Notes under the pieces: model-generated
The model's input: the letters and a program-made list of their open reading frames with translations, nothing else
The model's database searches: none
What the model was told of the DNA's origin: nothing
Shown here: piece by piece, positions 5,585 through 41,855 of the stretch
Position numbering within the stretch: position 1 is the first letter of the stretch
Layout: every line of letters begins with the position of its first letter
Made by a program: the position numbers and the translations under genes
Virus record (IMG/VR): IMGVR_UViG_3300007541_000002
Span: 1 to 42,598 of that record
DNA length: 42,598 nucleotides
Reading direction: 5' to 3' (one strand)
From: a virus

Positions 5585-6466
5585 GTGGACTCCATCATTG
5601 AACCCGCCATCTCTGAGACAGTAGACGAATACCACAAGTGGGCCATGGCTCTGTGGAAGGGGGAGGAGCCGGACATCGAGTCCTTGAAGGACCGCATGGT
5701 CAAGGTCCTCACCGTTTCGATGATGGCCGGCATGTCTACGGTGAAGGATGAGGACGAGGTCTTGGAGGTCGACAAGCACTCGGACCGGGTGAATCCCGTG
5801 TTCAAGGAAGCAGTCGAGGCACTGGCGAAGAAGGCCCCTACTCTGAGGATCATGAGCCCCAAGGGTCTCTCCGAGCGACTGAGACAAACCGCGTGGTACG
5901 TCTCCGGGGTTCTGAGCGCGAGCATACTGGAGAGGATCAGGGCCAGACTGGTGGAGGCCCGGGTGAACGGTCACTCGAGAGACTGGTTCACTCAGATGAT
6001 CTACGACGATGCGCAGACGTCGGCCGCTCACATCGAGACCGTGTTTCGTACCAACTCCGCCAGTGCTGCTGCTGCCGGCCGGTGGCAACAGTACACCGAC
6101 CCCGACGTGTCGGATCTGTTCTTCGGGTATAGGTACGTGTCGCAGGGCGACCACAGGTCTCGACCACTCCACAAGGCCATGAATGGATTCGCGGCTACCA
6201 AGGACGATCCGATCTGGAAACTGATTTGGGTTCCCAACGGATACAACTGTCGATGCAAGGTTAGACCAGTCCGGAAGAAGGACGCCATCTCCATCGGGTT
6301 GGTTGACGCTGAAGGCAGACCCCTGAACAGACGAGTCTTTGCTAACGAATTACAAAGGAAGATCGTAGCAGCAGCGGAAGACGGCGTCACCATAGGAATC
6401 GAAGGCAAGCCGAGCAGGTTTCCGGATGAAGGATTCCGTGGTAACGCCATGATGGACCTAGCGTAA
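5585..6466 (+). CDS. Head morphogenesis protein, Mu gpF / SPP1 gp7-like
   Basis: A 293-residue minor head protein. The C-terminal half holds the family signature: a His-x-x-Arg-Pro-x-His segment (DHRSRPLHKAMNGF), a DP-x-W segment, then NGYNCRCKVRPV. Proteins of this family sit at the portal vertex inside the head and are injected or aid assembly with the portal. The only usual start codon after the upstream TAA (5540-5542) is GTG 5585, but the preceding 14 codons read like coding sequence (TEQRLARLRIRG), so a non-canonical upstream start is possible. It is separated from the portal gene by about 8 kb (through the seam), longer than the usual Mu-like order. Confidence 0.85.
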   Translation: MDSIIEPAISETVDEYHKWAMALWKGEEPDIESLKDRMVKVLTVSMMAGMSTVKDEDEVLEVDKHSDRVNPVFKEAVEALAKKAPTLRIMSPKGLSERLRQTAWYVSGVLSASILERIRARLVEARVNGHSRDWFTQMIYDDAQTSAAHIETVFRTNSASAAAAGRWQQYTDPDVSDLFFGYRYVSQGDHRSRPLHKAMNGFAATKDDPIWKLIWVPNGYNCRCKVRPVRKKDAISIGLVDAEGRPLNRRVFANELQRKIVAAAEDGVTIGIEGKPSRFPDEGFRGNAMMDLA

Positions 6467-22838: not shown

Positions 22839-23340
22839 CTTCAACCAGTTGCACGATTTGATGAAACCGGTGCTTACGTCGGTGGCTCGCCGAATCGCTA
22901 GCCAATGCGTGGACGACGCGGTCCAGTGTGCTCTCATCAAGATATGGAGGAACATAGGCTACGTAGATCTAGGTAGGGAGGTCACGGTGAAGGCGTTGGT
23001 CATGAAGATCGGCGTCAGGGCCATGCGTGATGAGGTGCGAAGGGCGGTGGCCAAGTCAAAGGAAGCCAACGCTTCCGACGTTGCCTTGATATCCGTGGAC
23101 GCCGACTCCAAGCCGCTCCAGTTCGAGGGCCGACTGTTGAGCGAATACGTGAAGTACTACGAGGAGAACGGCACCTTCACCGGCGTACATTCGTTCGTGT
23201 CTAAGGTGTTGGGGGTGTCCGCGACCTCCTTACAGGCAGAGGCAAGGCGAGAGGCCCGTAGGCAAGCAGAAGCCCAAGGCTACGTCATTAGGAGTATGGA
23301 TGACATCTTCGATTCCATTATTCGCAGTCGATACGAGTGA
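22777..23340 (+). CDS. Sigma-70-like transcription factor A
   Basis: A 187-residue protein. Residues 20-75 resemble sigma region 2: FNQLHDLMKPVLTSVARR, then CVDDAVQCALIKIWRNI, and a later RAMRDEVRRAVAKSKE helix. The C-terminal region (SKVLGVSATSLQAEARREARR) looks like a helix-turn-helix of region 4. It may be a phage ECF-type sigma factor that redirects host RNA polymerase, for example to late genes. ATG 22777 overlaps the nuclease gene and its stop overlaps the polymerase start; a good AGGAG for the polymerase is inside this gene. It is plausible but not proven. Confidence 0.6.
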   Translation: MSTEGTGGEWSSAVREAQDGNFNQLHDLMKPVLTSVARRIASQCVDDAVQCALIKIWRNIGYVDLGREVTVKALVMKIGVRAMRDEVRRAVAKSKEANASDVALISVDADSKPLQFEGRLLSEYVKYYEENGTFTGVHSFVSKVLGVSATSLQAEARREARRQAEAQGYVIRSMDDIFDSIIRSRYE

Positions 23341-25468
23341 CCCGGGTGAGTACAGGTCGGTAATACCACAACAGTTTGATCTAGCCAGTGTGGGGGACCC
23401 CGTCGCCGGCGTGGTCGTAGCACTCGGCAAGAAGGCGGCAGAGAAGATCCTAGGCCGTTCCGTCAACATGAGGAAGGACGTCGGCGAGAGGTTCGAGGTC
23501 GACGGCGCGGTCGTGGTCGTTCAACACCACCCGATCAAGGTGTTGGAGGCGGCGAAGGAGAAGGGTGGAGCGGCCGAGAGGGTGGTCGAGTCGTGGGTCG
23601 ACGTGTGGGAGTACGCCATCGAACTGGCGAAGGGGGAGGAGCAGGAAATACCCGACGTGGTGTACCTGTTGGAGACTGATTCGATCATCTCGGTACTCGA
23701 GGAGGTCGCGTCCAACAAGTACCACGTGGCGTACGACTACGAGACGTGGGGAGACGTCACCGCCCTGCGTCCCGAGTTGAACTCCGACTTCAAGATCCTC
23801 AGCGTCGGCTTCGCGTTCGACGATCCCGAGTGTGGTCCGGTGTGCTTCTCCTTTCCAGTGGATCACCCGGCCGCGCGGGTGGATACCCCTAAGGTGTTGT
23901 CCGCGTGGAGGAGTGTGCTCGAGTCCTGCACCACCGTAGCGCACCACTCGAAGTACGAGCACAAGGTCAACCTCAGGGTGTACGGAAAGAGTTGGCCATC
24001 CCGGGACACCATGTTGGCCAGTTACGTCTTGGAAGAGGCTGCTAGCCACTCCTTATCCTCGTGCATGAAGAGGTTCGGGATCAGGTGGGGGCATAAGAAC
24101 GACGGCATCGGTGAGAACCCGGTGGAGGCGAAGGTCACCGATCTGCTCCGGTACAACGGTCTCGACGCGTTGGCTACTCTCGAACTGGAGACGTCGATGT
24201 CCAGGGACATGGATGAGGAGCAGTCATCTGTGTGGGAGATGGAGTGTGAGTTCGCTCTCGGATTGGCCAAACTCGAGAACACCGGGATAGCGTTCGACCC
24301 CGAGAGGTTGATCACCGTGAGAGCCGACTTGGTGGAGGACGTGGAGGAGGCTCGCCGGCGAGTCTACGACAGCGCCGAGGTCAAGTCGGTGGTCGATCAC
24401 TTCGGAAGGGACTTCAATCCGAAGAGCAACCCGATGATGCACCACCTCGTGTTCAAGGTGCTGAAGGAGAAGGTGAGGGGTCGCACCGCTTCCGGCTCCC
24501 CCAGTCTCGACAAGAGGGTACTGGAGAAACTCGAGGAGAAGCACCCAGTCCTCCGAGATCTGGCGGCGTGGAGGTCGAAGAGTGCCATGGTCACCGGTTT
24601 CGTTGACAAATGGTCGAAGTACGTGTCTCCCACGGGAACGATGCACGGGCAGTTCAGTCAGGCCGTCACGATGACCGGGAGGTTGTCGAGTACTGAGCCC
24701 AACTTTCAGAACATACCCAAGAACTCCGTGGTGAAGTCGGTCTTCGTGAGCCGGTTCGGTGGATGGTTGGTCGCGGCCGACTACGCGCAGCAGGAGCCTC
24801 GACTGGTCGCCGGAATCTCGGGTGATCAGAAGATGATCAGCGCCCTAAATGATGGTCTCGACCTTCATCGATTCGCTGCCGGCGAGATCTTCGGCGTCGG
24901 CTTCGACGAAGTCACCGACGTGCAGCGCGATGTAGGCAAGCGAATGAACCTCGGGATCATCTATGGGCAGACCGAATACGGGCTTGCTCAGAAGACTGGC
25001 ATGTCGTTGCCTGACGCTCGCTCACTGTTGAAGAGGTACGACGTCGCCTTCCCGGGAGTCGCGCGGTGGAAGCAGGAGCAGATCGCCTTCGCCATCAGGC
25101 ATGGCTACGTGAGGGACCTGTTCGGTTCTCGCCGGCACTTGCCCGACGTGTGGAGTTCGGACGATGCTACCCGGATGAGGGCGTACCGACAGGCCGGCAA
25201 TAGCCCGATCCAGTCGACCGCCGCAAAGTTGACGATGCTATCGCTCTGCATGCTTCAGGAGAGGCTGTTCCTGCGCGGGTGCGTGATGATGCAGGTCCAC
25301 GACAGTATCGTCATCGACGTCTCCGACCGGCACCTCGATCTCGGCATCGAGATCCTGCGAGAGTGCATGTTGGTGCACAACGAGATGCCGTACTGGAAAC
25401 CTCTCGGCGTCCCGTTCAAGGTGGACGTGAAGGCCGGAACTAACCTACTGGAGATGCATGATGTCTAA
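23300..25468 (+). CDS. dpoZ: DNA polymerase, family A (DpoZ-type candidate), with 3'-5' exonuclease
   Basis: A 722-residue family A DNA polymerase starting at ATG 23300 with AGGAG at ideal spacing. Residues 1-105 resemble only the C-terminal half of a uracil-DNA-glycosylase-type domain (VALGKKAAEKILG, VVVVQHHPIKVL). The 3'-5' exonuclease follows: motif I D146-Y-E148, motif III YNGLDA. Motif II reads HHSKYEH, with Glu where Asp is usual. Polymerase motifs: A (ADYAQQE, D494), B (K547 in GKRMNLGIIYG, with Leu at the usual Phe position) and C (VHDS, D668, with Ser where Glu is usual). Such changes fit a specialised polymerase that selects aminoadenine, given PurZ three genes away. The name dpoZ is inferred from context. 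Confidence 0.9.
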   Translation: MTSSIPLFAVDTSDPGEYRSVIPQQFDLASVGDPVAGVVVALGKKAAEKILGRSVNMRKDVGERFEVDGAVVVVQHHPIKVLEAAKEKGGAAERVVESWVDVWEYAIELAKGEEQEIPDVVYLLETDSIISVLEEVASNKYHVAYDYETWGDVTALRPELNSDFKILSVGFAFDDPECGPVCFSFPVDHPAARVDTPKVLSAWRSVLESCTTVAHHSKYEHKVNLRVYGKSWPSRDTMLASYVLEEAASHSLSSCMKRFGIRWGHKNDGIGENPVEAKVTDLLRYNGLDALATLELETSMSRDMDEEQSSVWEMECEFALGLAKLENTGIAFDPERLITVRADLVEDVEEARRRVYDSAEVKSVVDHFGRDFNPKSNPMMHHLVFKVLKEKVRGRTASGSPSLDKRVLEKLEEKHPVLRDLAAWRSKSAMVTGFVDKWSKYVSPTGTMHGQFSQAVTMTGRLSSTEPNFQNIPKNSVVKSVFVSRFGGWLVAADYAQQEPRLVAGISGDQKMISALNDGLDLHRFAAGEIFGVGFDEVTDVQRDVGKRMNLGIIYGQTEYGLAQKTGMSLPDARSLLKRYDVAFPGVARWKQEQIAFAIRHGYVRDLFGSRRHLPDVWSSDDATRMRAYRQAGNSPIQSTAAKLTMLSLCMLQERLFLRGCVMMQVHDSIVIDVSDRHLDLGIEILRECMLVHNEMPYWKPLGVPFKVDVKAGTNLLEMHDV

Positions 25469-25709: not shown

Positions 25710-26466
25710 GGACCTTCTCCGCCGGCAGTTGAAGGAGGCGCAGGAGCGCCGCAGCGCCGGCAACATCGCGTACGTGAAGGGTGACGTCTCCCTCCGCGTG
25801 ATCCCGTTCAAGGATGGCGACTCGATGAACTTCGCCCGGAAGTTCGTCCAGTGGCGTCCGCGTGGCGAGGGCCGGCCCGTCGCTCACCGTGGCAACTGGG
25901 ACAAGCCCGACCTGTTCGAGTCCGTGAAGCGAGAGACTCCGGATTTCCCGTGGAGGGAGACCAGTGCGTACCTCGTCAATGCGATCGACGTCTCCGGCAA
26001 CGAGCGCGAACTCCGCGTGTGGCAGTTGCCGGTCAGCGTGTACGAGGCGATCGCCGAGATCCTGCTCGATGACGATTACGACCATGCTCTCGACCCCAAG
26101 TCCGGCGTCCCGTTCAAGATCAAGCGGACCGGAACCGGACTCGCTACCAAGTATTCCGTGATGGTCGGGCAGAAGGCCGTCGACGTCTCGAAGTTCGTCT
26201 CGGCTGCTCGCGACCCCATGGACGCGGTCAGTGACCCGGGGCTCGAGACTCAGGCGAGCGCTCTCGGCGTGGATCTCGGTGACTTCGACATCGAAGCGGA
26301 CGAGCCGGCCCCGGTTGCCGAGAAGAAGAGCAAGAAGCCGGCTCCGGTCGCCGAAGACGACGATGAGGACGAGGACGAGGACGAACTGTTCCCGGCGCCG
26401 GCGAAGAAGTCGTCGACCGGCAAGGCTCCCTCGATCCGTGACCTGCTGAAGGGGGGCAAGAAGTGA
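25699..26466 (+). CDS. Single-stranded DNA-binding protein
   Basis: A 255-residue protein of gp32-like type: a mixed beta domain (residues 1-165) with FARKFVQWRPRGEGRPVAHR, WQLPVSVYEAI and a late VPFKIKRTGTGL that could be the OB-type binding face, followed by an acidic tail with DDDEDEDEDELF and a basic end (DLLKGGKK). Acidic C-termini of single-strand-binding proteins recruit polymerase, helicase and nucleases. It overlaps purZ by four bases. Placement among replication genes is decisive; the family match is by composition. Confidence 0.75.
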   Translation: MIDKDLLRRQLKEAQERRSAGNIAYVKGDVSLRVIPFKDGDSMNFARKFVQWRPRGEGRPVAHRGNWDKPDLFESVKRETPDFPWRETSAYLVNAIDVSGNERELRVWQLPVSVYEAIAEILLDDDYDHALDPKSGVPFKIKRTGTGLATKYSVMVGQKAVDVSKFVSAARDPMDAVSDPGLETQASALGVDLGDFDIEADEPAPVAEKKSKKPAPVAEDDDEDEDEDELFPAPAKKSSTGKAPSIRDLLKGGKK

Positions 26467-27476
26467 TCGACCAAGGAGCGATTTGCGTGATCGACTCACA
26501 GTGGGGTTCCTGTGGGAAGGGCAAGGTCGAGGGCGCGATCTACCAACGCTACCCCGGCATTCAGGTCGGCGTGTCCGACAACATGCCGAACGCCGGACAC
26601 ACCGTCTATTCCGAGGACGGCGAGAAGCACGTACTCAAGAGTCTGCCAGTGGCTTGCGCGTTGGGCAGGACTGGCGTACTCGGCCCCCACTCCGCGTTCT
26701 ACCCTTCGGCCATGGGGCTCGAGTGGGAGAAGATCTCGAAGTACGGTTCTCTCCTTTACATCGACAAACTCGCCTCACTGGTGCAGACTGCCGACAACAT
26801 GAAGGAGTTCAGCCTCGTCACTTCGATCGCTTCAACTGGTCAGGGCGGCGGTAGTTCGTCGATCCGGAAGATGGAGAGGCTTGGGCTCGGTACGTTGGCC
26901 GCGAGTCTCGAACTCGAGGCCAAGAACATCTTCGTGATGCGGACCAACGTCTACTGTCAGATGATCGCGTCCCGGGCTCCGATCCTCCTCGAGGGATCTC
27001 AGGGATTCGACCTCTCACTCAATCACGGGCACTCGTACCCCCACGTCACCAGTCGCGACGTCACCCCCAACCGGATGCTCGATAACGCCGGTCTCAGCCC
27101 CTTCGACTGCAAGGAAGTCATCGGGGTGGTGCGCACTTTCCCGATTCGCGTGGGTAACTATGGCGAGTTCTCGAGCGGACCCTGCTACGAGGATCAGCGG
27201 GAGATGTCGTGGTCTGAGGTCTCCGTCATCGCCGGCAAGACGGTGAGTGAGCGCACGACTGTCACCAACCGGTTGCGCCGCGTGTTCTCCTTCTCCGACA
27301 TGCAGTTCACCAAGTTCGTTCGGACGTGCCGGCCGACCCGGTTGTTCGTCACGTTTGGCGACTACCTTCCGGATAAGGAACTGGGCCAGTTCATCGACCG
27401 CGTCGAGGCAATCGCCGACGCCAAGGTGATGGCAGTGTCTCACGGACCCAAGAACGAGGATACCGAATGGCTCTGA
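26463..27476 (+). CDS. purZ: PurZ, 2-amino-adenylosuccinate synthase (Z-genome enzyme)
   Basis: A 337-residue PurA-family enzyme with a GTG start overlapping the previous TGA. The N-terminal motif is Q-W-G-S-C-G-K-G-K (residues 13-21): Ser16 stands where PurA has the catalytic Asp of GDEGKG. Other family motifs are intact: NAGHT (43-47), EGSQGFDLSLNHGHSYP and VTSRDVTPNR. This substitution is the known PurZ signature. PurZ converts dGMP plus L-aspartate to 2-amino-succino-dAMP (dSMP), which host PurB cleaves to dZMP. Its place beside the polymerase and dNTP enzymes supports a Z genome. It could still be a diverged PurA, but the Ser argues strongly against that. Confidence 0.93.
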   Translation: MIDQGAICVIDSQWGSCGKGKVEGAIYQRYPGIQVGVSDNMPNAGHTVYSEDGEKHVLKSLPVACALGRTGVLGPHSAFYPSAMGLEWEKISKYGSLLYIDKLASLVQTADNMKEFSLVTSIASTGQGGGSSSIRKMERLGLGTLAASLELEAKNIFVMRTNVYCQMIASRAPILLEGSQGFDLSLNHGHSYPHVTSRDVTPNRMLDNAGLSPFDCKEVIGVVRTFPIRVGNYGEFSSGPCYEDQREMSWSEVSVIAGKTVSERTTVTNRLRRVFSFSDMQFTKFVRTCRPTRLFVTFGDYLPDKELGQFIDRVEAIADAKVMAVSHGPKNEDTEWL

Positions 27477-35029: not shown

Positions 35030-35683
35030 ATGCTTAAGAGAATCATCGAACAGTACGTTGCTCCTCTCGCAGCCGCTGCCGCCGGAGGAGCCGGAGGAGC
35101 CGGGGGTGCTGCCGGGGGTGCCGCCGGTGCCGCCGGTGCCTCCGGTGCCTCAACCGCCGGCGAGGGGAAGGCTGTCGCGGACATGGCTAAGTCCGGGGGT
35201 GGTGGCTCGATCCCCAATCCGGGCGACGTGATCGGAGGGGGAATCAGGTCGGCGGGTAGGGCAGCAGCCGCCCCCTTCAACATTCTTTCGGCCATTCCTC
35301 AGTCAGCCGGCGCCTCGTACCGTGCGGACACCGGCGAGAAGTACTCAGGTCACAACTCCGGCAGGGAACGGGCTCGGTCGATCATGAGCATGCTCAGCGA
35401 CGCGGCAAACATGTCGAGGAACGCCGCCGTGGAGCAGCGCGGTGATCCCGACTTCAAGGACTTCCACCCGGGAGACGTCGCCATGGCTAAGATGGCCGAA
35501 GACCACTACGAGGAGTGGGGTCACACCCTCAGCCCGGAGGACGATGCTCGAGCGCGGAAGATGATCGAGGGCCTCCACAACACGTACGGGGGTCTTCACA
35601 ACTTCGACGGTCGGGGCCGGCGCGTCGAACACTACACGTCGGTGGGTCATCGGTACCGGGCTCTTCTCGATCGACTGAAGTAA
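35030..35683 (+). CDS. Gly/Ala-rich protein of unknown function
   Basis: A 217-residue protein starting three bases after the terminase. Residues 10-45 are a low-complexity run of Ala and Gly, resembling a flexible collagen-like or elastic spacer. The rest is charged with His/Asp-rich helices (HPGDVAMAKMAEDHYEEWGH). Composition is similar to the His/Asp-rich proteins nearby. It could be a virion-interior protein; no family recognised. Confidence 0.6.
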   Translation: MLKRIIEQYVAPLAAAAAGGAGGAGGAAGGAAGAAGASGASTAGEGKAVADMAKSGGGGSIPNPGDVIGGGIRSAGRAAAAPFNILSAIPQSAGASYRADTGEKYSGHNSGRERARSIMSMLSDAANMSRNAAVEQRGDPDFKDFHPGDVAMAKMAEDHYEEWGHTLSPEDDARARKMIEGLHNTYGGLHNFDGRGRRVEHYTSVGHRYRALLDRLK

Positions 35684-35685
35684 AC

Positions 35686-38361
35686 GTGAATAGGAAGACT
35701 CACCTGCACCCGGGTTGGACCCACGAGCAAGAAAGCGACCTCCGTCGCTTGCATGGTGACGTGTTCGAAGAGCCAGGTATAGCCGATTTCAATGCTTACT
35801 ACCACCCCGGCTCCGATACCGTCTACCTTGACATGATCAAGGTGAAGAGTAACTACAGGAAGGGTGGCATCGGCAGTTCGATCATGGACGCGTTGACCCA
35901 GTTCGCAGACAAGCACGGGAAGGGTCTGACGCTTCAAACCGCTAATAGGGCCTCGGGTTTAGGCACCACTTCTACGGGCCGGCTGAAGAAGTTCTACAAG
36001 AGGTTCGGCTTTCAGGAGAACAGCAACCCGAAGGATTACCGACCCGAGTTGCCGGGAAACATGAATCGACCCCCGGTCGAACGACATTCCCTCGGTGGAT
36101 TCCGTCACGAAGAGGACGAACACGGTGGTCATAGGATCACCTCGGACCACGGGACCATCGAATACGTCCCTAGCGGTGACACCAACCAAGTATGGTGGGT
36201 GGAGAGCCGGCGCCGAGGTCACGCCGGCGAACTCATGGCAGAAATGCTAAAGGCGCACCCGGCCGAATACGTCGAGTGGGGAGCCACGAGTGGGCAGGGA
36301 CAGGCGTTCAGAGAGTCATGGCACCGCAAGAACCCCGACGTCAAGGACGCCACTGGTGGAGAGCGCGTTCCCTTCGACGGCCAGTTTGATCCCTATGAAC
36401 ACGGGCGTGGCGACATGGACGACGAGTTCTACCTGATCATCGACGAGATCGAACGGTTCAACCTATACCGGTCGGCTTCCATCAGGAACCCGAGGACCGG
36501 ACAGATGTTCGAGGGTTCATGGCACGGCGCTGCTTACGACGCGGCCGTGGAAGCCGGTCACGACCCGGGGGTCCTCAGTTTCTGGGACGACGGGTTCACT
36601 ACTCACGACGGGAAGTTCCACACTCGGGAACAGGCGACTAAGGAGGCGCAGAAGCGTGTTCCGAGTGACGAGGGGGCAGAATCGGTGGACCTGATGACCA
36701 AGGGTCTCCTCACGACCGACCCCGGCCTGACGAAGAACGATCGGGTGAACTCCGACCTGCGCAAGAAGTTGTCCGACCACCTTGAGCAGCACTTCTACGA
36801 CTGCTTTGGCGAACTGGACCGATACGCTTACAGGTCGGCGGCTATCTACCACAAGAATACCGGGGTCGTGTTTGAGGGACCGATGCACTTGATGGCGCAC
36901 GACGCTGCCGCTCGAGCCGGACACCCTGACGCTCACAACCCGCACATGTGGGACGATGGGTTTGTCACTGACAAGGGACATTTCGAAGAACGGGAGGGGC
37001 GAGAGTCGGTTAACCTCATGTCAAAGGGGGAACTGCCACTTGCACCGAAGGGTGCAGAAGATCGGCCCGACATTCTCCCCGAGAAGGCTGCTCAACTGAG
37101 GGCGATTCATCTCAAGCGCGAATCGACCGACCGGCACTTCTACGACCACCTTGACGAACTTGACCGACACGCCGATTTGTTCCGGTCTGCTGCCATCAAG
37201 GACCCCAAGACTGGGGCCATCTTCGAGGGAACGTGGCACGGGGACGCCCGAGACAAGGCCATCGCCGCCGGCATTCCGGACGAACACACGTGGGAGTGGG
37301 AGGACGGTTTCGTCGATCACGAGGGTAACTACTACGACCGGGAGCAAGCCGCTGTACATACTCGCGCGGTCGCAGGTATTCCGACTCCCGCAGAGTCGAT
37401 CACGATGATGACTCAGGGACTCCTTCCCGTCGACCAGTCCTTGGCTGACAACCCCACCGTTGCCTATCCTTACCGGAAGAAGTTGGACGATTTCCTTCAC
37501 AACAAGAAGGTCAGGGCTTCATGGTTTGACCCTCCATCCACTGAGACCAAGGCAAGGCGGGAGGCCAATCTCGGAGAAGAGCCTGATCTCTCGAAGGTCG
37601 ATCAACACTTCTACGACCGCCTTGGTGAGGTCGACCGGTACGAGTTGTTCCGTTCTGCGGCCATTAAGCACCGGTGGTCCGGTGATATGTTCGAAGGAAC
37701 GTGGCACGAAGCCGCTCGTCAAGCCGCCCATGAAGCCGGGTACAACAACCCTTGGGACGGTTCATCCGACTGGATCGACGGATTCGTGACTCACGACGGC
37801 GCCTTCTTGGACCGTGATGCCGCTGCGGAGTTCTCCTTCGATCCCGAGACCCGGAAGCCCGGTGGACGCGAGTCGGTCGACCTCATGATCAAGGGCCACC
37901 TTCCCGTCGACGAAGACCTCGTGAATGACGAAGACCTTCGACCTAGCCTTCGCCGTGACCTCGAGGATCACCTCAGGTCGACCGGCCGTATTTCGGAGGA
38001 TACCCCTCTGATCAACAGGACCCCGAAGTGGTTGGACCGCCACGACTTGTACCGATCTGCCGCCATCAAGCACCCTAAGACGGGCGAAGTCTTCGAGGGA
38101 GCCATTCACGTGCTCGCTAGAGATAACGCCTTGGACGCGATGGGATCTAAGGCCCTCCACGTCCCTTGGGTGGACGGATTCGTCACTAACGAAGGTGAGT
38201 TTCACACGCGAAGACAGGCGGCAGGTAGGACTAAGAACAAGGCGGAGAGCGTCGCCCTTCACGTCTCAGGGCATTTAAATAACGATGAACTGAACAACTT
38301 GATCGAACAAGATCCGCAGATACTTGAAGATCACGGGTTTGGCCCGAGTGACGAGGACTAA
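35686..38361 (+). CDS. Giant polyvalent-type protein: two GNAT domains and five tandem modules
   Basis: An 891-residue protein starting at GTG 35686, three bases after the previous stop. The first GNAT acetyltransferase domain (residues about 25-115) has the acetyl-CoA loop R58-K-G-G-I-G63 and a C-terminal KFYKRFGF. A second GNAT-like unit near residues 145-205 has RRRGHAG. Then five copies of a 115-155 residue module begin at residues 262, 383, 500, 656 and 790, each 'RSAAI...TG-x-x-FEG-x-x-H...DGFVT...G-x-F-x-x-R...ESV-x-L-M-x-KG-x-L'. Such short modules recur in polyvalent proteins, which phages carry in the capsid and inject. It may acetylate host proteins while the modules bind or block host factors. 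It is the largest gene here. Confidence 0.8.
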   Translation: MNRKTHLHPGWTHEQESDLRRLHGDVFEEPGIADFNAYYHPGSDTVYLDMIKVKSNYRKGGIGSSIMDALTQFADKHGKGLTLQTANRASGLGTTSTGRLKKFYKRFGFQENSNPKDYRPELPGNMNRPPVERHSLGGFRHEEDEHGGHRITSDHGTIEYVPSGDTNQVWWVESRRRGHAGELMAEMLKAHPAEYVEWGATSGQGQAFRESWHRKNPDVKDATGGERVPFDGQFDPYEHGRGDMDDEFYLIIDEIERFNLYRSASIRNPRTGQMFEGSWHGAAYDAAVEAGHDPGVLSFWDDGFTTHDGKFHTREQATKEAQKRVPSDEGAESVDLMTKGLLTTDPGLTKNDRVNSDLRKKLSDHLEQHFYDCFGELDRYAYRSAAIYHKNTGVVFEGPMHLMAHDAAARAGHPDAHNPHMWDDGFVTDKGHFEEREGRESVNLMSKGELPLAPKGAEDRPDILPEKAAQLRAIHLKRESTDRHFYDHLDELDRHADLFRSAAIKDPKTGAIFEGTWHGDARDKAIAAGIPDEHTWEWEDGFVDHEGNYYDREQAAVHTRAVAGIPTPAESITMMTQGLLPVDQSLADNPTVAYPYRKKLDDFLHNKKVRASWFDPPSTETKARREANLGEEPDLSKVDQHFYDRLGEVDRYELFRSAAIKHRWSGDMFEGTWHEAARQAAHEAGYNNPWDGSSDWIDGFVTHDGAFLDRDAAAEFSFDPETRKPGGRESVDLMIKGHLPVDEDLVNDEDLRPSLRRDLEDHLRSTGRISEDTPLINRTPKWLDRHDLYRSAAIKHPKTGEVFEGAIHVLARDNALDAMGSKALHVPWVDGFVTNEGEFHTRRQAAGRTKNKAESVALHVSGHLNNDELNNLIEQDPQILEDHGFGPSDED

Positions 38362-40068
38362 ATGAGCGAAATCATGGACCGATTCAACGCGCCGATTGGC
38401 GCTTCGCAGAGTCGAGCCGCTGCCCGAGAAGGCAGGGCTGAGAAGTACCGGCTCGAGTCACCGACTCCGTACGAAGGCATGCAGTTGGTGGTGCGACCTC
38501 AGCGGCCTTTCGCCGTTGGCCACCGGTCGGCGCACTTCGACACGCTGTTCTCGTCGTTCATCGACCTCGTGCACGACCCCAGTCGAGCCAAGCAGCGCGA
38601 TCCCGACGTACAGAACCGGATGAGGCAGGATCTCCAGATCCTCGGGTGCCTCAACGTACGGAAGTTGGCGACCATCCAACTCCGTCGCGAGTTCGTGCCG
38701 GCGAACAGTTCACCCGAAGCCAAACTGGTGGCGGAGCGGTTCAACCGCCTTTGGAAGCAGCAGTACCGTGAGAGCGAGACGCTGAGCAACATGCTCGACG
38801 CCATCCTCGACGGCATCAGCATCCAAGAGGTGATGTGGAAGTTGAACGAGGAGGACTACACCTTCGGCATCGGCCGAATGTTCCCCTGCTACAAGGATCG
38901 TTTCGTCTTCTCGAAGACTGGGCAACTCGCACTCCTCACGAGGCACAACGTCTTCTATGGTGATCTTGTTCATCCTTGGCAATTCGTCAAGCACGTTTAC
39001 AATCCAAGTGGTGGTTCTTACCGAAACCCCTCCGATGAAGGACGGATCTACTGGGGACAGGGTCTCGAGGACTCCATCTACCCCAACTACTTCTTCAAGA
39101 CCGTCGTGCTCAACCTCTACACCCGGTGGTTGCAGCGACTTTCCTCCGGAGTTCTCGTTGCCCGATATCCTTATAAGAATCCTGACGCGCGATCCGTCGC
39201 CCTTGAACTCCTCGAGGCGTATCAGGAGGACGAGGAACTGGCGTATCCTTCGGGGGAGGAATGGGACCTTGAAGTCAAGGAGGCGACCCGGGCTCCCGCT
39301 GACACGTACCTATCCTTCATCGAGTACGTCGACCGGCAGATCTCGAAGGCGATTCTAGGCTCCACTCTGATCATCGATCAGGGAGACGTCGGGAGCCAGT
39401 CCCTCGGCGAAGTCCACGAGCGTACCACGTTCGGGCGCATCACGGAGTTCGATCGCGTCGGCCTCATTGAGACGATCAATACGGAACTGGTTCCGGTGCT
39501 CGGATCCCTCAACAAGATCCCCGAGCAGTTGTACCCCAAGTTCGACATGCCGATCGATGAGACGAGCCCCGGAGCGATCCAGATTCTCGAGGCCTTCCAG
39601 ATCCTGCAGAGTCTTGGCTTCGACGTCACCGCCGAGATGGTGACCGAGAAGACCGGCTTCCGGTCCGCGAAGCCCGGGGAGACGCTCCTCGCCCTCCCTC
39701 AGGCCATGATGATGGGTCAGGGCGGGGAGGCCGAGCAGAAGGACGGGGAAGGCTCCCCGATGTCGTACTTGAACCTCTCCAGTCCCGAAGGCGTCGAGAA
39801 GATGCGGGACGTCGTTTACCGGGCCAGTAGCAACCACACCCGTGGGAAGCAGAAGTACAGCCTCTCCACTGGTGGAATGGGCGAGGCACACCGTCACACC
39901 GCTACCCTCGACAAGGAAGGCAACGGAGAGACCGACCGGGGGCCTGACGGACACTACCACGAGGTGCGCAAGTTCCGGTGCACCCCGGTCGACGGCCACA
40001 GCCATGACGTCATGATTCCGAATGGTGACCTTGACCGAGTGGTCAGGGCTCTTGCAGGACTGCGCTGA
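38362..40068 (+). CDS. Portal protein, Mu gp29-like (DUF935)
   Basis: A 568-residue portal. The middle resembles DUF935, with a stem region MLDAILDGISIQEVMW near residue 150, a CYKDRFVFSKTG segment, and ILGSTLIIDQGDVGSQSLGEVHERT near residues 330-355, a recognisable family signature. The portal forms the dodecameric ring for DNA entry and exit. After residue about 470 there is a His-rich extension with two H-x-H motifs (HRHTATLDKEG and DGHYHEV, DGHSHDV), absent from the core family, that could bind metal. Starts at ATG 38362, directly after the previous stop. Confidence 0.88.
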   Translation: MSEIMDRFNAPIGASQSRAAAREGRAEKYRLESPTPYEGMQLVVRPQRPFAVGHRSAHFDTLFSSFIDLVHDPSRAKQRDPDVQNRMRQDLQILGCLNVRKLATIQLRREFVPANSSPEAKLVAERFNRLWKQQYRESETLSNMLDAILDGISIQEVMWKLNEEDYTFGIGRMFPCYKDRFVFSKTGQLALLTRHNVFYGDLVHPWQFVKHVYNPSGGSYRNPSDEGRIYWGQGLEDSIYPNYFFKTVVLNLYTRWLQRLSSGVLVARYPYKNPDARSVALELLEAYQEDEELAYPSGEEWDLEVKEATRAPADTYLSFIEYVDRQISKAILGSTLIIDQGDVGSQSLGEVHERTTFGRITEFDRVGLIETINTELVPVLGSLNKIPEQLYPKFDMPIDETSPGAIQILEAFQILQSLGFDVTAEMVTEKTGFRSAKPGETLLALPQAMMMGQGGEAEQKDGEGSPMSYLNLSSPEGVEKMRDVVYRASSNHTRGKQKYSLSTGGMGEAHRHTATLDKEGNGETDRGPDGHYHEVRKFRCTPVDGHSHDVMIPNGDLDRVVRALAGLR

Positions 40069-41036
40069 TGTTCGGATCCGACACACACCCGACTCCGCTG
40101 TGGGACCACCCTGACTTTGATCACATCGGGTGGGCCAGTCAGGTGGACCTCGAGGACGCGAATCACGAGGTGTACCGTCGCCCCGAAGAAAGTCCCCACT
40201 ACTCTTTGTCCGAGGATGACTGGAGGCCCGTCTTCAGGAAGAAGGGGGGACATGGGGACGTCGTGGTTCACCACGATCCCGACGTCGGATCGATCTTCGC
40301 GCATTACCCACACGACAAGAACTTGCGCCCGATGTTGTGGACCGTCGCCGACAACCCTGACGGCACAGACATCGACATCATGTCTTCCTCGGGTGGTGGG
40401 AACTGGCAGACCTTCCACGACAAGGGTGCGCCGGGAAAGTCCACGCCGGCGGTCATCAAGGAGGTCGGTGGCATCGTCAAGATTCACCACCCGGACAAGG
40501 TGTTCAAGGGTACGCGGGTCACTGGGGCGGCTTCCAAGAACCCGGCGTCTTCCACCCGTGAGTTCGACTTCTCGCGATTCTCCGCTGAGGACGTCGAGCG
40601 TTATTACATCGAGGTGTACGGCGACGATTACAGGATTTACCACCGGCCTCCCCGCCCCGAGCATGGCGCCCCCCTGCACGACTTGACGCAGGTCTACCCG
40701 GATGACGTCTACACTCACCCCCACTATTACCATGGTCAGCGGCCGGCCAGTGCGTCAGACCGGGAAGCGACCAGTGCGTTCATGGCGGCACGGGGCAACC
40801 CCGATCACACCGTGAAGATCTACAGGGCGGTCCCCAAGCACGTGACTGACATCAACCCGGGGGACTGGATCACGACGTCACCTTCTTACGCTCGGATCCA
40901 CGCCGGCAATAAGAGCGAAGGGTTTCATGTTCTCGAGGCAACGGCCCGGGCCGGCGACCTCCACACGGACGGCAACTCCTTGGCTGAATACGGCTACAAC
41001 GGCACTTCCGCGATCAAGGGAAGGAGGATCAGGTGA
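40068..41036 (+). CDS. ADP-ribosyltransferase-like virion protein
   Basis: A 322-residue protein overlapping the portal gene by one base (TGATG). The N-terminal two-thirds share a domain with the next gene (DHPDF-x-H(I/V)G, VKIHHPDKVFKGTRVTG, AEDVERYY). The C-terminal 75 residues fit the ART fold of polyvalent proteins: R253 in IYRAVP, a GDWITTSPSYARIHAG segment with the Ser-Thr-Ser-like element, and E307 in LAEYGYNG, the three R-S-E positions. Such ARTs modify host proteins or nucleic acids. The combination with the portal and GNAT proteins suggests an injected anti-host set. ART activity is an inference. Confidence 0.75.
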   Translation: MFGSDTHPTPLWDHPDFDHIGWASQVDLEDANHEVYRRPEESPHYSLSEDDWRPVFRKKGGHGDVVVHHDPDVGSIFAHYPHDKNLRPMLWTVADNPDGTDIDIMSSSGGGNWQTFHDKGAPGKSTPAVIKEVGGIVKIHHPDKVFKGTRVTGAASKNPASSTREFDFSRFSAEDVERYYIEVYGDDYRIYHRPPRPEHGAPLHDLTQVYPDDVYTHPHYYHGQRPASASDREATSAFMAARGNPDHTVKIYRAVPKHVTDINPGDWITTSPSYARIHAGNKSEGFHVLEATARAGDLHTDGNSLAEYGYNGTSAIKGRRIR

Positions 41037-41599
41037 ACGAGGATAGGACGCCGATCTACGATCACCCCGACTTTCAGCACGTTGGCTTCGTGTCTCGAGA
41101 TGCAGTCGAGAGCAAGGGTGCCGAATCCTTGAGCGAGGTCAGGAGCAAGCAAGGTTCGAGGGACATGCCCTTGTTCAAGCACAAGGACGGAGCCCATCTA
41201 GCCGTTGATCATCACTCCGGTCCCGATGGCCAGTCGTTCAAGGCTTACCACTTCCCGAACGACGGTACTCCCGCGTTGTCGTTCGGAGCACACGACCGAG
41301 TCACCGAAGACCCGAGGGTGGTCCGAGGACACGTCGAGTCTTGGGGCAACCACTTTGAAGATCCCGAGGACGAAGACAGCGGCCAATACACCGGGTTCGG
41401 TCTGTCGGAGGGTTTCAACAAGGCGGGAGTGGGCAACGTCAGGCGTGTCGGCGAAGTGATCAAGGCTCATTTCCCGGATCACCTGTTTACTGGTGAACGA
41501 GTGACCGGAAGGAGCCCGGGCAGAGAGGTGTGGATGGACACCAAGAAGTTCACGGCCGAAGAGGTCGAGAGGTACTACAATGAGGCGTACAATGGCTGA
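41033..41599 (+). CDS. Paralog of ART-like protein without the ART domain
   Basis: A 188-residue protein starting at GTG 41033, overlapping the previous stop (GTGA) with AAGGAGG upstream. It shares the N-terminal domain with the preceding gene: DHPDFQHVGF, VIKAHFPDHLFTGERVTGR and AEEVERYYNEAYNG. It lacks the ART module, so it is a truncated or one-domain paralog. It may bind the same partner as the first protein. Ends within the next small gene. Confidence 0.7.
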   Translation: MNEDRTPIYDHPDFQHVGFVSRDAVESKGAESLSEVRSKQGSRDMPLFKHKDGAHLAVDHHSGPDGQSFKAYHFPNDGTPALSFGAHDRVTEDPRVVRGHVESWGNHFEDPEDEDSGQYTGFGLSEGFNKAGVGNVRRVGEVIKAHFPDHLFTGERVTGRSPGREVWMDTKKFTAEEVERYYNEAYNG

Positions 41600-41855
41600 A
41601 GACAAGACGTTGTTTCTCGACGATTCCTTCAACAGGGCTATCGTCGGTCACTTTCAGAGGTGTGGGAAGCCGACCGTGGTCGTTTACGACACGAACAAGG
41701 TCATCAAGGTCTTGATGGATCGTGACGGGATGACCGACGAGGAGGCGACGGAGTTCTTCAACTTCAACATAGAAGGAGCGTGGATCGGCGAAGGTACGCC
41801 GGCGTTCCTCTACCGTGGAAAGCGCAAGCAGATCGAGGACCTGATCGACTCGTAA
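41592..41855 (+). CDS. Small conserved phage protein
   Basis: An 87-residue protein (ATG 41592; ATG 41580 is also possible, with GAGAGG upstream). It begins EDKTLFLDDSFNRAIVGHFQRC, a pattern common to a family of uncharacterised phage proteins with 'FLD...FD..IIG', then VVYDTNKVIKVLMDRDGMTDEEATEFFNFNIEGAW. It is a small alpha/beta protein, perhaps a regulator or virion component. Function unknown. Confidence 0.7.
   Translation: MAEDKTLFLDDSFNRAIVGHFQRCGKPTVVVYDTNKVIKVLMDRDGMTDEEATEFFNFNIEGAWIGEGTPAFLYRGKRKQIEDLIDS

What the first reader, a model, noticed from the sequence alone, without database searches (positions are those of the whole stretch)
40068..41599. ADP-ribosyltransferase-like protein with an adjacent paralog lacking the ART module
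The two genes share a domain (DHPDF..., VERYY...) but only the first has an R-S-E type ART tail. The second could be an immunity, antidote or competitor subunit, or a separate binding protein. With the GNAT protein they form a portal-adjacent set of likely effectors.
Basis: partly seen in the sequence, partly recalled or inferred. Interest (0 to 1): 0.7.

Follow-up and report, generated by a model that had tools for sequence, protein, structure and literature searches.

The report
Phage ADP-ribosyltransferase with truncated twin
Right behind its DNA-packaging portal gene this environmental phage carries a probable ADP-ribosylating enzyme (a protein-modifying effector), plus a second gene that is a free copy of the enzyme's non-catalytic front half; the enzyme module is common in phages but is usually unnamed or labelled 'ParB C-terminal domain'.

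Summary
ORF 40068-41036 (322 aa) has an orphan N-domain (residues 1-187) and a C-terminal module (188-322). ORF 41033-41599 (188 aa) is a diverged copy of the N-domain only (Smith-Waterman 185 against shuffles 37±7; no similarity to the module). The module is modelled at pLDDT about 90-98, and its PDB matches are almost all ADP-ribosyltransferase (ART) superfamily: KptA/Tpt1, CNFy, TreTu, Arr, PARPs, AvrPphF, ParT, ExoS. R253, T/S269 and E307 are conserved in 45/45 diverse phage sequences. The module is PHROG 2579 ('ParB C-terminal domain'), has no Pfam or NCBIfam model, and differs from the H-Y-D ART-PolyVal family beside which it is fused in some polyvalent proteins. Its neighbours elsewhere are mostly portal, terminase and head-morphogenesis genes.

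Antidote is not supported for gene 2: a 41.6-kb relative (portal 89% identical) has a single-copy ART gene and no gene 2. A more distant relative (75%) lacks the whole cassette. N-domains diverge about 8-fold faster than the portal.

Best reading: a portal-coupled phage effector with a variable targeting or docking domain, gene 2 being that domain expressed alone. Delivery in the virion, target and gene 2's role are inferred. This is a new variant of a known kind.

The parts
40068..41036 (+). ART gene (322 aa): orphan N-domain + C-terminal ADP-ribosyltransferase-fold module
   Evidence: ORF; PHROG 2579 E 2.9e-44 over residues 69-314; model and structural matches
40068..40628 (+). N-domain, residues 1-187: no Pfam, PHROG or PDB relatives found; fold unresolved (pLDDT about 30-75)
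   Evidence: homologues found only in gene 2 and in L006-L008
40629..41033 (+). ART module, residues 188-322, pLDDT about 90-98 from residue 201 (77 over 191-200); R-[T/S]-E signature
   Evidence: 354 viral contigs encode relatives
40824..40826 (+). Arg253 codon (strand 248-255), invariant 45/45
40872..40874 (+). Thr269 codon (strand 267-269), T or S in 45/45 (this position lay inside a search pattern)
40986..40988 (+). Glu307 codon (start of strand 307-310), invariant 45/45
41033..41599 (+). Gene 2: free-standing diverged copy of the N-domain (188 aa), lacks the ART module
41592..41855 (+). Downstream small gene (87 aa, PHROG 13182, function unknown), overlaps the end of gene 2; directly follows the ART gene in L006-L008
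38362..40068 (+). Mu-type portal protein (Portal_Mu), stop overlaps the ART start
   Evidence: PF06074 E 6e-57, phrog_113
35680..38361 (+). GNAT-domain protein with repeated 'FRSAAI...FEGTWH...DGF' units, on the other side of the portal; accessory like the ART gene
   Evidence: PF13508 E 3e-8; repeat-type multiple hits in L006-L008; GTG start at 35680 inferred

Best explanation
The first gene is a phage ADP-ribosyltransferase, made late from the portal operon. It most likely acts as an effector on bacterial (host) macromolecules, in the manner of T4 Alt. The C-terminal module binds NAD+ and transfers ADP-ribose, using R253 (strand 1), T269 (strand 2) and E307 (strand 5). The N-terminal domain is a fast-changing targeting or docking part that brings the enzyme to its substrate or into the particle. 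Gene 2 is that targeting part expressed without the enzyme, from duplication and loss (or never gain) of the module. It probably occupies the same partner as the enzyme does, as a decoy, spacer or dosage partner. Shown here: domain structure, paralogy, ART fold by model, conservation of R and E, overlapping genes behind the portal, accessory status. Inferred: enzymatic activity, packaging and injection, target, and gene 2's role.
For: Fold: AlphaFold pLDDT about 90-98 over the module. Every VIA-align match above Z 3.3 is an ART-like fold: KptA/Tpt1 Z 6.6 (2.7 A, 78 residues), CNFy domain 5.7, TreTu 5.4, Arr 5.1, PARP13 4.6, AvrPphF 4.5, ParT 3.8, ExoS 3.4. R253 and E307 are invariant in 45 sequences although neither was in the search patterns. 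Context: start/stop overlaps with the portal gene. Among 99 neighbouring proteins of the module in other viral loci, the commonest named families are portal, terminase, minor head, head morphogenesis and head maturation protease. The module sits among structural genes in Rhodococcus phage E3, Gordonia phages Pupper and Skog and MW202573, and is in one protein with Phage_Mu_F in L099. Literature: phage ARTs encoded next to or fused to portal and head genes are proposed to be packaged and injected (PMC9503650, PMC5512222). Fast N-domain: dN 0.66, against 0.32 for the module and 0.083 for the portal, between the window and L006.
Against: No enzymatic or virion-proteome data. Foldseek against the PDB gave no significant hit (best E 0.43), and Z 5-7 is only moderate. 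The standalone forms in cluster E mycobacteriophages and in the schizotequatrovirus PVA23 are not next to head genes, so packaging is not a property of the family as a whole. The N-domain fold is unresolved, and 'targeting' rests on its evolutionary rate only. Catalytic geometry was inferred from strand positions, not from coordinates.
Confidence: 0.5

Rival explanations
1. Gene 2 is a cognate immunity or antidote protein that binds the ART and protects the producing cell, as Bsi does for the MuF-ART toxin Bxa.
For: Small ORF directly downstream of a head-region ART; phage ART toxins with adjacent immunity genes exist (PMC11699363; MuF toxins PMC5576092).
Against: Three sister contigs have the ART without gene 2 and with a single N-domain copy. 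Gene 2 is homologous to the enzyme's own N-domain rather than an unrelated inhibitor. No match to it in phage records or beyond the sister group in viral contigs, and no PADLOC hit. If the ART needs an antidote, the downstream 41592-41855 gene is the better-conserved candidate.
Confidence: 0.12
2. Gene 2 is a relic of a whole-gene tandem duplication that lost its ART module and is drifting, with no selected role.
For: It ends exactly at the domain boundary and is absent in sisters. L006 also carries a relic of the domain-end motif, FDMSRFTASEIERY against FDFSRFSAEDVERY (score 54 against 22±4, 0 of 1000 shuffles reach it), so copies of this domain come and go.
Against: Intact frame over 172 aligned codons at only 35% identity, dN/dS below 1, normal codon-position GC, a ribosome-binding site and coupled starts and stops.
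Confidence: 0.22
3. The ART is not injected. It acts inside the infected cell late in infection on host defence or on virion parts such as the portal, for example to counter defences that sense packaging proteins.
For: Overlapping genes in the portal operon; PMC9503650 itself names this alternative; some family members lie outside head regions.
Against: The 322-aa ART is fused to no virion protein here, so the context fits either reading. The head-gene neighbourhood of the family and the fusion in one protein with Phage_Mu_F (L099) favour packaging somewhat.
Confidence: 0.25
4. The module has an ART-like fold but is not a transferase: a NAD+ hydrolase, or a nucleic-acid-binding part as the label 'ParB C-terminal domain' would suggest.
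For: PHROG label; KptA, which acts on RNA, is among the best fold matches; a standalone member lies near replication genes in PVA23.
Against: Invariant R and E in strand-1 and strand-5 positions. It occurs standalone and in many architectures; of 14 relatives scanned only one showed a weak ParB_N match.
Confidence: 0.15

Closest known systems
PHROG 2579 ('ParB C-terminal domain'): Mycobacterium phage Myrna gp78, cluster E gp130 (Phaux), Rhodococcus phage E3 gp206, Gordonia phages Pupper gp109 and Skog gp173
   Same: Same module, about 30-48% identity, same R..GDW[VI][TS]..YA..E.G[YWF] signature
   Different: Different N-terminal partners (GNAT-like in E3 and Skog) or standalone; none has this N-domain or a free copy of it
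T4 Alt / ModA / ModB (Alt/VIP2-type R-S-E ARTs)
   Same: Phage ART with an R, S/T and E active-site pattern; proposed early effector; Alt is virion-packaged (literature)
   Different: No Pfam or other sequence match to an Alt/VIP2-type model. PMC5512222 says that family does not occur in genuine polyvalent proteins, whereas this module does
ART-PolyVal (PF18760), ARTs of polyvalent proteins
   Same: ART superfamily, phage, found in the same proteins (L037, L085, L077)
   Different: PF18760-type uses H-Y-D (PMC5512222); this module uses R-[T/S]-E and gives no PF18760 hit at E up to 10
Bxa, the MuF-ART of a Bacteroides prophage, with immunity proteins Bsi and BAH (PMC11699363)
   Same: Head-region phage ART with a small gene downstream; modular N-terminal part plus C-terminal ART
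   Different: No MuF domain in this protein; gene 2 is a copy of the enzyme's own N-domain and is not kept in sister phages

Membership tests
ADP-ribosyltransferase superfamily | ART fold | tested here: met
   Model at pLDDT about 90-98; top structural matches are ART-like folds, Z up to 6.6; moderate Z, and Foldseek alone not significant
ADP-ribosyltransferase superfamily | Conserved R-S-E-type residues at strand 1, 2 and 5 positions | tested here: met
   R253 45/45, T/S269 45/45, E307 45/45; strands 248-255, 267-269, 307-310
ADP-ribosyltransferase superfamily | NAD+ binding and ADP-ribose transfer | not testable with these tools
   Needs biochemistry
PHROG 2579 ('ParB C-terminal domain') | Profile match | tested here: met
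   E 2.9e-44, residues 69-314
ART-PolyVal PF18760 | Profile match and H-Y-D site | tested here: not met
   No hit at E up to 10; R, not H, in strand 1
T4 Alt/VIP2 ARTs | Sequence-profile match | tested here: not met
   No Pfam ART family hit; the R-S-E pattern is shared only as a clade feature
MuF toxin family | N-terminal MuF domain fused to the toxin | tested here: not met
   No Phage_Mu_F hit in the protein; a separate minor-head protein lies at 5585-6466
Toxin-immunity pair | Immunity gene kept together with the toxin | tested here: not met
   Gene 2 absent in three sister contigs that carry the ART
Virion-packaged phage effector | Protein present in virion and injected | not testable with these tools
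   Context only

The most novel reading that the evidence does not exclude
PHROG 2579 is an unrecognised R-[T/S]-E ADP-ribosyltransferase family, spread over hundreds of phages and inside polyvalent proteins, and in this lineage its targeting domain is also made as a separate, enzyme-free protein that controls or spreads the enzyme's docking: a two-part effector whose regulator is a copy of its own aiming domain.
Probability: 0.25. Interest if true: 0.65.

Novelty: new variant of a known kind. Interest (0 to 1): 0.45.

Why it matters
A module found in at least 354 viral contigs and 171 phage records, including about 150 Mycobacterium phages with culturable hosts, is labelled 'ParB C-terminal domain' or hypothetical although its fold and invariant residues point to an ADP-ribosyltransferase. 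Recognising it would add a family to the known set of phage NAD+-dependent effectors, would show an R-[T/S]-E type ART inside polyvalent proteins (earlier described there as H-Y-D), and gives simple laboratory tests with M. smegmatis phages. The free N-domain copy is a small natural experiment on what such N-domains do.

Tried and rejected
(1) N-domain as a degenerate GNAT, suggested by E3 gp206 and Skog gp173 where a GNAT-like domain precedes the ART: hhalign of the 3-sequence N-domain profile gave probabilities of 0.1-0.4%, so dropped. (2) Pfam up to E 10, NCBIfam, PADLOC and PDB sequence searches for the N-domain or gene 2: nothing usable. (3) Gene 2 as query: no match in phage records or viral contigs; alignment searches find only the three sister contigs. 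(4) AlphaFold of gene 2 with 3 sequences: mean pLDDT 41.6, uninformative. (5) Scan of 84,980 bacterial and archaeal genomes: the first pattern set gave none, the second only one relative, in a Methylococcales MAG contig; the patterns differ from the viral scan, so this suggests but does not prove rarity outside phages. (6) Weak VIA-align rows for residues 1-176 (proteasome, p32 and the like, Z under 3.3) are low-confidence noise. (7) Dating the duplication: N-domain identities wART-gene 2 35.5%, wART-L006 36.9%, gene 2-L006 28.7% cannot say whether duplication came before or after the split. (8) The 171 phage records are dominated by near-identical mycobacteriophages, so the count overstates diversity. 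(9) A first alignment that included gene 2 together with the module sequences (A5) misplaced gene 2 and was replaced by A7.

Full report
Observation. The window is a 42.6-kb viral record. Behind a Mu-type portal gene (38362-40068; PF06074 E 6e-57) lie ORF 40068-41036 (322 aa) and ORF 41033-41599 (188 aa). Portal, ART gene, gene 2 and the following gene all overlap at their ends (TGATG, GTGA, ATGGCTGA), and gene 2 has a GGAGG upstream of its GTG, as in one translationally coupled late operon (inference). Gene 2 matches residues 9-184 of the first protein: Smith-Waterman 185 against 37±7 in 500 shuffles, and nothing in residues 191-322 (34 against 33±6). A six-frame search of the own genome finds just this pair for the full protein and one copy of the module.

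What the C-terminal module is. Residues 69-314 match PHROG 2579 ('ParB C-terminal domain') at E 2.9e-44; Pfam and NCBIfam give nothing usable. tblastn finds 171 phage records, 150 of them Mycobacterium phages, the rest mostly Vibrio, Gordonia and Rhodococcus phages, and three actinobacterial plasmids. A pattern scan finds 354 viral contigs with relatives, of which the best 80 were fetched. In these the module is standalone (about 130-160 aa), C-terminal, N-terminal or internal to large proteins (some ORFs are truncated by locus ends). In several it shares a protein with ART-PolyVal PF18760, and in single cases with LPD38 or Phage_Mu_F. Across 45 non-redundant sequences R253, E307, Y188, H192, Y215, P245, P256 and H278 are invariant and position 269 is always T or S. 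N263, G265, D266, W267 and T269 lay in a search pattern, so their invariance is partly imposed, and Y215 was in the alternative pattern; R253 and E307 were in neither.

Fold. AlphaFold with this alignment gives pLDDT about 90-98 over most of residues 201-322. Plain Foldseek against the PDB is not significant, though ART-like proteins (KptA, ExoS, TNT) rank first. VIA-align on Foldseek's candidates gives KptA/Tpt1 (Z 6.6, 2.7 A, 78 residues), CNFy, TreTu, Arr, PARP13/16/10/14/12, AvrPphF, IcmQ, ParT and ExoS; above Z 3.3 every row belongs to ART-like folds (family attribution from established knowledge). R253 lies in strand 248-255, T269 in strand 267-269 and E307 starts strand 307-310, the order expected of R-S-E ARTs. 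Predicted structures of other phages' members are found by Foldseek with E down to 7e-15.

Family placement. The polyvalent-protein ARTs described before use H, Y and D; Alt/VIP2-type ARTs use R, S and E and were said not to occur in genuine polyvalent proteins (PMC5512222). The present module has R-[T/S]-E, occurs in polyvalent-type proteins, and matches neither by profile. In the papers searched I found no description of PHROG 2579 as an ART; the library holds open-access papers only.

Context and comparison. Contigs L006-L008 (portal 89% identical) have one 384-aa ORF of this type at the same place, followed directly by the homologue of the 41592-41855 gene, and no gene 2. The whole 41.6-kb record of L008 contains one N-domain and one module. 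L009 (portal 75%) has neither ART nor gene 2, nor the GNAT-repeat gene on the portal's other side. These are therefore accessory genes around a conserved portal. Between window and L006, dN is 0.083 for the portal, 0.316 for the module and 0.661 for the N-domain (dS is near saturation and low-identity alignment inflates the last value). L006's N-terminus contains a relic of the domain-end motif (score 54 against 22±4, 0 of 1000 shuffles), so this domain has probably been duplicated and trimmed more than once. Among 99 neighbouring proteins of the module in other loci, the most frequent named PHROGs are portal, terminase, head maturation protease, minor head and head morphogenesis.

Mechanism. 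Most likely (confidence about 0.5 as a whole): a phage ADP-ribosyltransferase effector (ART fold and active-site pattern about 0.9), made with the head proteins and possibly packaged and injected as proposed for phage ARTs in such contexts (PMC9503650; about 0.5), with a rapidly evolving N-domain for targeting or docking (inference) and gene 2 as a free copy of it (role inferred; about 0.3 for a docking competitor or partner). Antidote is disfavoured by its absence in sister phages, though the Bxa-Bsi-BAH system (PMC11699363) shows that such antidotes exist for head-region ARTs. A drifting relic remains possible. The N-domain's fold could not be resolved, and a GNAT relationship was tested and not supported.

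Verdict. Real and largely as described; an unlabelled ART family plus a lineage-specific free N-domain. New variant of a known kind, moderate interest.

Noticed in passing
window 26463-27476, with 23300-25468: PurZ-like succino-amino-deoxyadenylate synthase (NF038379 E 1.6e-56, below its cutoff) near a family-A DNA polymerase (better PolA than DpoZ match) and a dUTPase: the phage may use 2-aminoadenine (Z) DNA.
   Followed up: partly
window 35680-38361: GNAT-domain protein with about five repeats of a 'FRSAAI...FEGTWH...DGF' unit; the repeat protein in L006 has about three and lacks the GNAT part. phrog_839 matches the repeat.
   Followed up: partly
L003:3284-4717 (Mycobacterium phage Myrna gp78): Upstream of the shared module the protein has a second ART-looking segment (LYRGM...RHWTTNPDVAEDF); possibly two ART domains in one protein.
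   Followed up: no
PHROG 2579 / phage records annotated 'ParB C-terminal domain': Annotation probably misleading: the matched module has an ART-type fold and occurs standalone and in many architectures.
   Followed up: yes
L017:2516-2860 (Cutibacterium modestum plasmid): A short relative of the module lies next to a Fic protein with a VbhA-type antitoxin and recombinases.
   Followed up: no
L006:3571-3750: Collapsed extra copy of the N-domain: start motif joined directly to the end motif FDMSRFTASEIERY.
   Followed up: partly
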